A stretch of DNA of 64,000 bases. It comes from Maribellus sp. YY47 (GTDB lineage Bacteria; Bacteroidota; Bacteroidia; Bacteroidales; Prolixibacteraceae). This document shows, piece after piece, positions 25,793-28,137 of the stretch. The notes under the pieces were generated by a model. It ran no database searches. It was not told where the DNA came from and worked only from the letters and a program-made list of their open reading frames with translations. Numbering within the stretch: position 1 is the stretch's first letter; each line of letters starts with the position of its first letter. The position numbers and the translations under genes are program-made. The stretch lies in contig NZ_JALGYW010000002.1 of NCBI RefSeq assembly GCF_023111095.1, positions 186,001 to 250,000 of the forward strand, written 5' to 3'.

Positions 25793-25800
25793 CAAATATA
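25793..25800 (-). promoter_or_regulatory. -7 box for rlmD, deciding its start
   Basis: Minus-strand TATATTTG is a full match to TAnnTTTG. It leaves a short leader before GTG 25776 and excludes the ATG at 25821. Confidence 0.6.
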
Positions 25801-25840
25801 ATTCAATCTTACACATAGCATTATGATTGCCGCAAGTTAT

Positions 25841-25870
25841 GATTCCCAAATAAACTTTAGGATTCCCAAA
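25841..25870. repeat. Direct repeat GATTCCCAAA, two copies 20 bp apart
   Basis: Identical decamers at 25841-25850 and 25861-25870 lie on one DNA face two helical turns apart, about 45-70 bases upstream of the rlmD -7 box and about 80-105 before the RNA promoter. They could be an operator; nothing else supports this. Confidence 0.4.
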
Positions 25871-25947
25871 ATGAAAAAACAGACCTTATTAATGCCTGTA
25901 AAAGCATTTTTATGTTTCATTTATATTTCGCGTAACAATCATTTAAT

Positions 25948-25955
25948 TATATTTG
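25948..25955 (+). promoter_or_regulatory. -7 box for the structured RNA
   Basis: TATATTTG, embedded in AATTATATTTGC, is a full -7 match and nearly the same as the box of the following ABC-F gene (GATTATATTTGC). Confidence 0.55.
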
Positions 25956-25959
25956 CTAT

Positions 25960-26127
25960 TGATTTAATGGTTGGTTTTATTTTCAATAAGTAAAACTGAA
26001 TAGGGGAAAGCGACTTCTGTATTTATGATTGGTTTTGTGTTTAGGGGTTTGTAAATTATCAATCATCTTCAAAAAGCGTCCATAGTGCTTTCCCCTTCCT
26101 TTTTTTACCCGAGAGGGTATTTTTTTT
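25960..26127 (+). ncRNA. Probable free-standing structured RNA (6S-like candidate)
   Basis: A transcript of about 165 bases between its own -7 box (25948-25955) and a terminator (26107-26127). A 9-bp terminal helix GGGGAAAGC (26003-26011) / GCTTTCCCC (26087-26095) is extended by ACT/AGT with one bulge. It encloses a large internal loop and a 7-bp inner helix ATGATTG (26025-26031) / CAATCAT (26060-26066) with a 28-base apical loop. A 5' hairpin TATTGA/TCAATA may form at 25957-25988. A long interrupted rod of this size resembles 6S RNA, but I cannot confirm the family. It lacks the SRP, tmRNA and RNase P hallmarks I know. An attenuator for ABC-F is the alternative, though that gene has its own promoter. 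Confidence 0.55.
26107..26127 (+). terminator. Terminator of the structured RNA
   Basis: ACCC-GAGA-GGGT tetraloop hairpin followed by ATTTTTTTT. A T-rich run (26096-26106) also follows the main helix of the RNA. Confidence 0.7.
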
Positions 26128-26164
26128 GCCCTTAATCTACTCCTTCATTTCTGACACGATTGAT

Positions 26165-26172
26165 TATATTTG
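26165..26172 (+). promoter_or_regulatory. -7 box for the ABC-F gene
   Basis: TATATTTG lies 19 bases before the ATG at 26191. It excludes a TTG start at 26170 that falls inside the box. Confidence 0.6.
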
Positions 26173-26190
26173 CGCGATTCAGTTACGATT

Positions 26191-28137
26191 ATGATTTCTT
26201 TAGATAAAATAAATTTAAGTTTTGGTGGTTTTGAACTTTTCAAAGAGATTAGTTTTTTGATTAATCCCAAAGACCGTATCGGGTTGATCGGAAAGAACGG
26301 AGCAGGAAAAACTACTTTACTCAAGATTATTAGCGGAATAAACTCTCCGACTTCAGGCAGCGTTGGCATTTCGAAGGATGTTACCATTGGCTATCTGCCA
26401 CAGCAAATGAAGGTTTCGGATACCCGCACATTAAAAGACGAAGCGACGCAGGCTTTTAAAGAGATCCTTCAACTGGAAAAGCAAATTGCTCAGCTCAACA
26501 ACGAAATAGCCGAAAGCTCCGATTATCATTCAAGCGAATACCTTAGCAAACTCGATAAAGTAACCGAGTTGCACGAGCGTTTTCAGCTTCTGGGAGGCGA
26601 TAACTACGAAGCAGAACTCGAACGTACCTTGCTGGGATTGGGTTTTGAACGTTCTGATTTTGGACGTTCGACATCTGAATTTAGCGGAGGATGGAGAATG
26701 CGTGTTGAACTAGCCAAACTTCTGCTTCAGAAACCGGATGTATTTTTGCTCGACGAGCCCACCAACCACCTCGATATTGAATCGATTCAATGGCTCGAAG
26801 ATTTTCTGAAAGACTACAAAGGAGCAGTTGTTCTGGTATCGCACGACAAAACCTTTCTGAACGCGGTTTGTAACAGGACCATCGAGATATCGCTCGGCAA
26901 AATTCTGGACCAAAAGATGAATTACTCATCCTTTTTAACCTGGAAGGAAGAACAAAAGAAAATCAATCTTGCGGCCTACCAGAACCAGCAAAAATTGATT
27001 GAGGACACCGAAAAATTTATCGAAAGGTTTCGCTACAAAGCATCGAAAGCAGTACAAGTACAATCGCGTATCAAACAACTGGATAAAATCGACCGGCTTG
27101 AAATTGAAGAAGAAGATAATTCAGCATTAAAACTAAACTTTCCACCGGCACCGCGTTCCGGGAAAGTGGTGGTTTCGGCTAAACATATTACAAAAGCATA
27201 CGGATCGCATCTGGTTCTTGACGATATTGACTTAAACATCGAGCTGGGCGAGAAAGTCGCGTTTGTTGGCCGGAACGGTGAAGGAAAAACCACATTGGCC
27301 CGGATCATCATGAATGAACTGGACCATCAGGGACACATGCAACTCGGACACAATGTTAAAATAGGGTATTTTGCACAAAACCAGGCACAATTACTCAACG
27401 AGGAACTCACCATTTTTGAAACGATCGACGAAATAGCAGTGGGAGATATTCGGACAAAGATCCGGGACATACTGGCTGCATTTTTATTTAAGGGAGAAGA
27501 CATCGACAAGAAAGTAAAAGTGTTGAGCGGTGGTGAAAAATCACGACTGGCGATGATTCGTCTAATGTTGGAACCGGTCAACTTCCTGATACTCGATGAG
27601 CCGACCAACCACCTCGACATCCGATCGAAAGAGATTCTAAAAAATGCACTTGCCAACTTTACCGGAACGGTATTGGTTGTTTCGCACGACCGCGATTTCC
27701 TGGATGGCCTGGTAAACTGCATCTATGAATTCAGAAATAAAAAAGCCAAACAACACCTGGGCGGTATCTTTGATTTCCTGTACCGAAAAAAGATGGAATC
27801 GATGAGAGAACTGGAAGCAAAAAGTAATGCTTCCAAAACCAATAATTCCATTCAAAAAGAAAAAGGGAAAAACGAACTCAGCTTTGAAGAACAAAAAGAA
27901 ATAAGCCGAAACATTTCCCGGTTCGAAAAACAGGTGCAGGATGCCGAACAACGTATTTCGGACCTGGAAGGAGAGATTGAAGAAATGGACAAAGTCCTAT
28001 CCTCTTCGGCACAAATCAACGACCACAGCCTTTTTGACAAATACGAAGATTTAAAAAAGAAGCTAGAAGAAATGATGCACGAATGGGAGAATACAAACGA
28101 AGAACTGGAAGCCTGGAAAATCAAAAAAACCTGGTAA
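26191..28137 (+). CDS. ABC-F family ATPase (ribosome-associated type)
   Basis: Soluble duplicated ABC ATPase without membrane domains, of the translation-factor/ribosome-protection group. In 648 residues there are two ABC modules: Walker A GKNGAGKTT and GRNGEGKTT, signatures FSGGWRMRVELAKLL and LSGGEKSRLAMIRLM, Walker B VFLLDEPTNHLD and FLILDEPTNHLD. Between them lies the charged P-site tRNA-interaction linker (about 240-330), and a coiled C-terminal domain runs from about 540. The ATG at 26191 is chosen by the promoter box. Resemblance is to YdiF/Uup-like members; an antibiotic role cannot be claimed. rlmB follows 44 bases downstream. Confidence 0.93.
   Translation: MISLDKINLSFGGFELFKEISFLINPKDRIGLIGKNGAGKTTLLKIISGINSPTSGSVGISKDVTIGYLPQQMKVSDTRTLKDEATQAFKEILQLEKQIAQLNNEIAESSDYHSSEYLSKLDKVTELHERFQLLGGDNYEAELERTLLGLGFERSDFGRSTSEFSGGWRMRVELAKLLLQKPDVFLLDEPTNHLDIESIQWLEDFLKDYKGAVVLVSHDKTFLNAVCNRTIEISLGKILDQKMNYSSFLTWKEEQKKINLAAYQNQQKLIEDTEKFIERFRYKASKAVQVQSRIKQLDKIDRLEIEEEDNSALKLNFPPAPRSGKVVVSAKHITKAYGSHLVLDDIDLNIELGEKVAFVGRNGEGKTTLARIIMNELDHQGHMQLGHNVKIGYFAQNQAQLLNEELTIFETIDEIAVGDIRTKIRDILAAFLFKGEDIDKKVKVLSGGEKSRLAMIRLMLEPVNFLILDEPTNHLDIRSKEILKNALANFTGTVLVVSHDRDFLDGLVNCIYEFRNKKAKQHLGGIFDFLYRKKMESMRELEAKSNASKTNNSIQKEKGKNELSFEEQKEISRNISRFEKQVQDAEQRISDLEGEIEEMDKVLSSSAQINDHSLFDKYEDLKKKLEEMMHEWENTNEELEAWKIKKTW

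What the first reader, a model, noticed from the sequence alone, without database searches (positions are those of the whole stretch)
25948..26127. A free-standing structured RNA between rlmD and the ABC-F gene
Seen: a full -7 box, a 9-bp GGGGAAAGC/GCTTTCCCC closing helix, a 7-bp inner helix, a long internal loop, and a tetraloop terminator with a T run, all in about 170 bases with no coding frame. The next gene has its own -7 box after the terminator. Size and rod-like shape suggest 6S RNA or an unknown sRNA; the family is not proven.
Basis: partly seen in the sequence, partly recalled or inferred. Interest (0 to 1): 0.7.

Follow-up and report, generated by a model that had tools for sequence, protein, structure and literature searches.

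The report
Multicopy small RNA with sigma-54 promoters
The spot is very probably a free-standing small RNA gene, one of five copies of a family scattered through this bacterium's genome, and many copies of the family appear to be switched on by a specialised (sigma-54) promoter and a shared control element, a combination that would make it a new, testable regulatory RNA system.

Summary
In detail: window 25948-26127 has a -7 box, a ten-pair closing helix (P1), an inner helix (P2), a T run and a second terminator hairpin. No test run here supports 6S RNA. The 101-nt core is one of five copies in this genome and is found in 35 of 37 genomes of its genus and 53 of 140 of its family, Prolixibacteraceae, 1-6 copies each, without an Rfam match. 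P1 is supported by covariation: 10 of 10 pairs show compensatory changes over 86 distinct copies. The unexpected part is upstream: 53 of 63 copies outside two sigma-70-like classes have a sigma-54-type -24/-12 element, with a palindrome TTCCCAnnnTGGGAA 68-70 bp before it in 46 of 54. The window's own site (beside rlmD) keeps the palindrome but has a housekeeping -7 box; the same site in two other genera is sigma-54-type, so the promoter type was exchanged, once on the rlmD tree. Best reading: a multicopy trans-acting sRNA family, Qrr-like in control. Transcription, activator and targets are not shown; three seed searches found no enrichment beyond composition.

The parts
25843..25857 (+). distal upstream half-palindrome (TTCCCAAATAAACTT), 20 bp before the main one
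   Evidence: sequence; a similar second site about 20 bp further out is listed for several orthologues, and sigma-54 copies show a second, weaker peak at 87-89 bp
25863..25877 (+). upstream palindrome TTCCCAnnnTGGGAA (putative activator site), here 10 of 12 (TTCCCAAAATGAAAA)
   Evidence: at -136 to -140 from P1 in 28 of 28 class A copies examined; 12 of 12 in 20 of them
25948..25955 (+). -7 box TATATTTG of the RNA gene (housekeeping sigma type of Bacteroidota; motif recalled)
   Evidence: TAnnTTTG in all 26 distinct class A sequences
25961..25998 (+). 5' extension of this locus class: predicted unpaired GATTTAATGGTT, then a hairpin (about 25973-25982/25988-25997); predicted 5' end 25961
   Evidence: first 22 nt identical in 26 of 26 distinct class A sequences (12 of these nt were used to define the class; all 38 copies at the rlmD site are either this class or sigma-54-type); hairpin predicted in 17 of 17 distinct extensions
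26002..26011 (+). P1 closing helix, 5' strand
   Evidence: 10 of 10 pairs with compensatory changes
26026..26033 (+). P2 inner helix, 5' strand
   Evidence: 99.0% of cells paired, one-sided changes only
26043..26054 (+). highly conserved apical loop AGGGGTTTGTAA
26058..26065 (+). P2 inner helix, 3' strand
26071..26081 (+). highly conserved unpaired AAAAAGCGTCC on the 3' side of the internal loop
   Evidence: a few diverged copies differ
26087..26096 (+). P1 closing helix, 3' strand
26097..26106 (+). T-rich tail after P1 (first terminator-like end, shared by the family)
   Evidence: 8 or more T in the 13 nt after P1 in 85 of 103 copies, mean 8.9; background 4.4
26106..26127 (+). second terminator hairpin with tetraloop and T8
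   Evidence: also visible in most class A sequences printed, absent in some such as L030, L041, L172

Best explanation
It is the rlmD-side member of a multicopy family of free-standing small RNA genes. Each gene would make an RNA of about 100-150 nt (this one about 165 nt with its 5' extension) that ends in its own closing helix plus T run. Many family members are read by sigma-54 RNA polymerase and switched on together by one enhancer-binding activator at a palindrome 68-70 bp before the -24 element; the window copy has exchanged its core promoter for a housekeeping one and gives a basal supply. The RNA then acts in trans, most likely by base pairing of its conserved unpaired segments (apical loop, AAAAAGCGUCC and, in this class, the invariant 5' end) with mRNAs, so that copy number and activator set the dose. 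Shown in silico: the family, P1, the promoter elements and their spacing, the two promoter types at one site. Inferred: transcription, use of sigma-54 and of one activator, the direction of the exchange, and above all action in trans by base pairing (that last step at about 0.5).
For: Five copies in the own genome, 35 of 37 genus genomes, 53 of 140 family genomes. Compensatory changes in 10 of 10 P1 pairs. T-rich tail always sought on the same side and present in 85 of 103 copies. Sigma-54 score p<=0.05 against shuffles in 53 of 63 copies outside classes A and D, 0 of 28 in A, 0 of 14 in D. Palindrome to -24 distance 68-70 bp in 46 of 54 copies. In 1.41 Mb (both strands together) of fetched stretches the joint element occurs 51 times, 44 of them at copies of the RNA. 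Sigma-54 gene over cut-off in 131 of 140 family genomes, this one included. The rlmD site holds 38 copies over six genera; sigma-54-type in g26 and g183, -7 box in the other four; the latter form one clade at 95/96.
Against: No expression data. No target: complements of the apical loop and of AAAAAGCGTCC are not enriched in this genome (21 vs 19 and 10 vs 43 for the reversed control; 5 and 4 of these hits are the RNA itself). A third complement gave 37 vs 7, but Markov expectations from fetched genus DNA, scaled to this genome, are about 33-37, and only one of 25 non-self hits looked at lies just before a plausible start. 10 of 63 copies miss p<=0.05 for sigma-54 (two of these ten are the weak hits L192 and L220). 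The single sigma-54 element is not very specific: 554 of 6240 random 85-nt windows pass the cut-off of 11. A sigma-54-type activator should not by itself drive a housekeeping promoter, yet class A keeps the palindrome. The window's own palindrome is decayed. Class D copies lack the palindrome. rpoN is nearly universal in the family, so its presence does not discriminate. The activator is not identified. The sigma-54 consensus was recalled.
Confidence: 0.66

Rival explanations
1. The RNA works by binding and sequestering a protein (as CsrB, CrcZ or 6S types do) rather than by pairing with mRNA; the conserved loop and 3' segment are the protein site, and several copies raise the sponge dose.
For: The unpaired segments stay close to constant across copies whose P1 has changed, as expected of a protein site; no mRNA complement was found enriched.
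Against: No repeated binding motif was noticed inside the core RNA, as sponges usually have (recalled; not searched systematically). In class A the motif ATGRTTGGTTTT does occur twice, once in the extension.
Confidence: 0.27
2. A short DNA element (MITE or REP-like) with terminal inverted repeats that spreads by transposition, without an RNA function.
For: Dispersed, near-identical copies bounded by an inverted repeat; lineage-specific extra copies.
Against: The ends vary with compensation while the inside stays nearly fixed, the reverse of what recognised transposon ends would do; promoter elements and T runs lie on set sides; sites are shared between species and genera. Target-site duplications were not searched for.
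Confidence: 0.03
3. A cis-acting leader or terminator of the ABC-F gene (or of rlmD).
For: It lies 5' of the ABC-F gene on the same strand in the window and in 15 of 21 genus copies with enough DNA.
Against: A terminator hairpin and a separate -7 box lie between; the RNA stays with rlmD where ABC-F is not behind it (5 of 5 g26 copies with DNA, 6 of 21 genus copies); other copies sit beside genes without a common theme in the eight proteins scanned.
Confidence: 0.03
4. A divergent 6S RNA of this bacterial family.
For: Closing helix, wide internal loop and terminal stem give a rod; no RF00013 match elsewhere in this genome.
Against: No 6S family among the matches at E<=10; 1-6 copies per genome, many behind sigma-54-type promoters; stems of 10 and 8 pairs are short for 6S (recalled). 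RF00013 misses the Bacteroides control too, so its silence is weak.
Confidence: 0.03

Closest known systems
Qrr small RNAs of Vibrio (sigma-54 and LuxO)
   Same: related sRNA genes under sigma-54 promoters with upstream activator sites (PMC10162802: passages seen; other Qrr papers: listing and abstract starts only)
   Different: no sequence or structure relation tested or claimed; other phylum; here one locus has a housekeeping-type promoter; activator and targets unknown
FopS/GibS paralogous sRNAs of Bacteroides (RbpB ligands)
   Same: multicopy sRNA family in Bacteroidales (14 FopS members in B. thetaiotaomicron; PMC11697453: outline and passages seen)
   Different: FopS has a single-stranded 5' stretch then a terminator hairpin, and canonical sigma-ABfr promoters; here the core is closed by P1 and many copies have sigma-54-type promoters; sequences were not compared directly
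Rfp36 of Flavobacterium psychrophilum
   Same: a putative regulatory RNA tabulated under sigma-54-type (SM4) promoters in Bacteroidota (PMC9723704: passages seen)
   Different: one RNA in a table; no family, structure or enhancer described in the passages I saw; sequence not compared
6S RNA
   Same: rod with closing stem and internal loop
   Different: no model match, several copies per genome, short stems

Membership tests
6S RNA | match to a 6S covariance model | tested here: not met
   (no 6S family among the matches); own genome none, though the Bacteroides control is missed too
6S RNA | binds housekeeping polymerase and templates pRNA | not testable with these tools
   needs biochemistry
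6S RNA | one or two copies per genome (recalled) | tested here: not met
   5 copies in own genome, up to 6 in relatives
FopS/GibS | single-stranded 5' seed region followed by one terminator hairpin | tested here: not met
   core enclosed by P1; FopS architecture from passages. The class A 5' extension does begin unpaired
FopS/GibS | canonical sigma-ABfr promoters | tested here: inconclusive
   class A has a -7 box, but 53 of 63 copies outside classes A and D are sigma-54-type
FopS/GibS | sequence relation to FopS members | not tested
   no FopS sequence was fetched; I did not check that FopS is in this Rfam copy (one search lists no such match)
FopS/GibS | bound by RbpB | not testable with these tools
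   needs CLIP or gel shift
sigma-54-dependent sRNA genes (works like Qrr) | -24/-12 element before the RNA | tested here: met
   53 of 63 copies outside classes A and D at p<=0.05; NOT met by the window copy, the other 27 class A copies or the 14 class D copies
sigma-54-dependent sRNA genes (works like Qrr) | upstream activator sites | tested here: met
   palindrome 68-70 bp upstream of -24 in 46 of 54; 44 of 51 joint elements are at copies
sigma-54-dependent sRNA genes (works like Qrr) | rpoN in the genome | tested here: met
   own genome G000:C43:225115-225588; 131 of 140 family genomes over cut-off
sigma-54-dependent sRNA genes (works like Qrr) | identified enhancer-binding protein | not tested
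sigma-54-dependent sRNA genes (works like Qrr) | pairs with target mRNAs | tested here: inconclusive
   three complement searches without enrichment beyond composition
MITE/REP-like DNA element | terminal repeats fixed in sequence | tested here: not met
   P1 strands vary with compensation
MITE/REP-like DNA element | target-site duplications | not tested
   not searched

The most novel reading that the evidence does not exclude
One enhancer-binding activator addresses both sigma-54 promoters and a housekeeping promoter of the same sRNA family: at the ancestral rlmD site the -24/-12 core was replaced by a TAnnTTTG box while the palindrome and its distance to the predicted RNA start (about 95-98 bp, my arithmetic) stayed the same, so the family became a two-sigma regulon under one DNA signal.
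Probability: 0.2. Interest if true: 0.8.

Novelty: new variant of a known kind. Interest (0 to 1): 0.6.

Why it matters
It gives a structured, multicopy RNA family of Prolixibacteraceae without a match in the Rfam copy searched, with a promoter and enhancer map ready for test. Paralogous sRNAs in Bacteroidota are known from Bacteroides; a family whose copies share a sigma-54-type enhancer architecture did not turn up in four searches of the held open-access library (listings only, apart from passages of PMC9723704). The two promoter classes at one conserved site, with the activator site kept, are a natural experiment on how regulons change sigma factor.

Tried and rejected
Rfam at gathering threshold over the window: 0 matches; at E<=10 over 25800-26260: two chance-level matches (CRISPR-DR21 on +, RAGATH-35 on -).

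Seeds: TTACAAACCC 21 hits vs 19 for the reversed control, 5 of the 21 being the RNA itself; GGACGCTTTT 10 vs 43, 4 of the 10 self. Of the 16 non-self TTACAAACCC hits, three lie within 80 nt before a start (a fourth start lies inside a longer frame): too few to claim. AAAACCAAYCA 37 vs 7 looked promising; of the 30 loci given, 5 are the RNA itself, 12 of the other 25 lie inside an open sense frame and one lies just before a plausible start. In 1.08 Mb of fetched genus DNA it occurs 6 times against Markov expectations of 3.5-4.0, which scaled to this genome gives about 33-37: composition explains it.

Distant homologues: model R2 over 393 genomes of the order gave 12 genomes at E<=0.05, four of the own family and eight others at E 0.002-0.04; the six of these eight that became loci lack the exact core strings GGGTTTGTAA and AAAGCGTCC, so I count them as chance. 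R2 over 70 of the 80 ABC-F loci: no match. The 30-base match in G060 was not confirmed by R1.

Rows dropped or not given: one search listed 128 rows at E<=1; the 23 above E 0.001 (mostly antisense echoes of true copies) were dropped. Searches were not given eight near-identical rlmD-site loci (L004, L006, L014, L015, L016, L018, L020, L023), and several copies listed were never fetched; so the 104-105 copies analysed are a part of those listed. Two weak hits (L192, L220) are in the 105 but not in A6; L220 lacks the core, L192 has a different P1 and a partly similar core. The tree used 30 of 38 rlmD rows (eight near copies dropped) and six of the 11 outgroup rows found.

Concerted evolution: identity to the own genome's rlmD copy exceeds the mean of other genomes in 39 of 44 paralogues, but it is strictly the highest in only 2: suggestive at most. 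Neighbour genes of copies: eight proteins scanned, no common theme.

Full report
WHAT IS THERE. The fold beats 199 of 200 dinucleotide shuffles. No ORF of 40 aa or more overlaps 26000-26127. The ABC-F scan returned Maribellus and Draconibacterium as nearest.

A FAMILY. A nucleotide search of 61 genomes (own plus 60 relatives) found the same site and, in many of them, further sites with about 73-99% identity, mostly over the P1-to-P1 unit. A covariance model (R1, 18 seed sequences) finds 1-6 copies in 35 of 37 genus genomes and none in 24 genomes of other families; 53 of 140 genomes and 7 of 23 genera of the family (genus g189 only weakly, E about 0.001); and only family members (3 genomes) among 247 genomes of the order. 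Searches of over 40 genomes used stricter filters that lose weak matches. This genome has five copies: C12 (the window), C51, C1, C17, C31. A second model (R2, 104 copies) gave no convincing hit outside the family in 393 order genomes.

STRUCTURE. On 104 copies (86 distinct) P1 has 10 of 10 pairs with changes on both sides, 98.0% of P1+P2 cells pair, and none of 500 shuffles reaches the observed values. P1 ranges from GGGGAAAGC/GCTTTCCCC to GGGTAGAAC/GTTCTACCC, AGGGTGGGAA/TTCCCACCCT and AAAGATTAGA/TCTAATCTTT. P2 is kept by sequence with one-sided changes only. The apical loop AGGGGTTTGTAA and the unpaired AAAAAGCGTCC are highly conserved, though a few diverged copies depart from the latter. 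A structural clamp with conserved loops is what an RNA gene would show, and the opposite of a mobile element with fixed ends. A T-rich tail follows P1 in 85 of 103 copies.

PROMOTERS. Copies fall in three groups by upstream sequence. Class A is the rlmD site with TAnnTTTG and a 22-nt 5' end GATTTAATGGTTGGTTTTATTT that is identical in 26 of 26 distinct sequences (12 of the 22 define the class), leading into a hairpin in 17 of 17 extensions folded. Class D has a GTAACTTG-type box (11 or 14 copies by two patterns). Most of the rest carry TGG-N8-TTG[C/G/T], the spacing of sigma-54 -24/-12 elements. With weights from the recalled consensus, 53 of 63 such copies beat shuffles at p<=0.05 (40 at p<=0.01), against 0 of 28 class A and 0 of 14 class D. 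The single element is not very specific: 554 of 6240 random 85-nt windows reach the cut-off of 11. The pair is: a palindrome TTCCCAnnnTGGGAA, found by k-mer and dyad enrichment, sits 68-70 bp before the -24 element in 46 of 54 copies with score 11 or more, with a weaker second peak about 20 bp further out. The joint element occurs 51 times in 1.41 Mb (both strands together) of fetched DNA, 44 times at copies of the RNA. By locus cluster, 19 of 28 genomic sites have at least one copy with a score of 11 or more, one of the 19 being the weak hit L192. Among ten palindromes with up to one mismatch in this genome (the reversed control gives eight, so the palindrome alone is not enriched), only the one at the C31 copy has a sigma-54-type element at the family distance. 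Copies are related by descent, so these counts are not independent events.

A PROMOTER EXCHANGE. Flanking genes put 38 copies in one site beside rlmD, over six genera. In g26 (6 of 6 copies) and g183 (4 of 4 at this site) the promoter is of sigma-54 type with the palindrome; in the own genus, g182, g188 and g194 it is TAnnTTTG, and the palindrome is still there at -136 to -140 from P1 in 28 of 28 (20 perfect; the window and L003 lowest at 10 of 12). On an rlmD tree of 30 such rows and six outgroups the TAnnTTTG copies form one clade (95/96), with the sigma-54-type copies outside it. The branch that joins g26 to them has 84/87, below the tool's star, so sigma-54 as the ancestral state is likely, not certain. 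From palindrome to predicted start is about 95-96 bp in the sigma-54 form and about 98 bp in class A (my arithmetic; no mapped starts).

NOT A LEADER. Of 21 genus copies at the rlmD site with enough DNA behind them, six have no ABC-F gene there (L012, L013, L017, L019, L022, L029), nor have 5 of 5 such g26 copies. In nine loci the ABC-F gene lies upstream of a class D copy, on the opposite strand.

MECHANISM. My best reading is a dose-controlled trans-acting sRNA family: a basal copy at rlmD and a set of inducible copies under sigma-54 and one activator. The closest working parallel is Qrr in Vibrio (PMC10162802, passages). Within Bacteroidales the closest kind is FopS (PMC11697453, outline and passages), whose architecture and promoters differ. 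A sigma-54-type promoter before a putative RNA, Rfp36, is tabulated in Flavobacterium psychrophilum (PMC9723704, passages). Whether the RNA pairs with mRNA or holds a protein is open: three complement searches showed nothing beyond composition.

LIMITS. No expression data; the sigma-54 consensus and the Bacteroidota -7 box are recalled; A6 was fitted to the model; the analysed copies are a part of those listed; literature negatives rest in one open-access library. On re-checking I corrected several counts; none called for a change of odds.

Noticed in passing
L194, L200, L202, L205, L208, L219, L224, L225, L228: In these nine loci the ABC-F gene lies upstream of a class D copy on the opposite strand (in L200 as the second gene): the RNA seems to travel or re-arise with it.
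   Followed up: partly
window 25966-25980 and 26025-26036: The motif ATGRTTGGTTTT occurs twice in the window RNA; the 5' copy (AUGGUUGG) could pair with the P2 3' strand and compete with P2, a possible strand exchange (read from the sequence; not computed).
   Followed up: no
L193:4266-4342 -, L195:4218-4296 -, L127:4448-4524 -: Weak antisense matches to R1 (19-20 bits, E 0.19-0.33) at similar places beside copies of one locus cluster, perhaps a decayed divergent copy or chance.
   Followed up: no
L118:4995-5300 and L221:1898-2472: Genome G026 carries a tandem pair and a divergent pair of copies within a few hundred bases.
   Followed up: no
L115:5064-5834: Two copies 670 bp apart with identical upstream 75 bases: a recent duplication that includes the promoter.
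   Followed up: no
L216:5490 +: A palindrome plus sigma-54-type element at the family spacing without a copy of the RNA (scores 10 and 12.4): a candidate further target of the activator, one of seven such places.
   Followed up: no
L192:4068-4169 -: Genus g189 has a weak match with a wholly different closing helix (ATCCACGACA/TGTCGTGGAT) and a partly similar core; a possible distant relative.
   Followed up: partly
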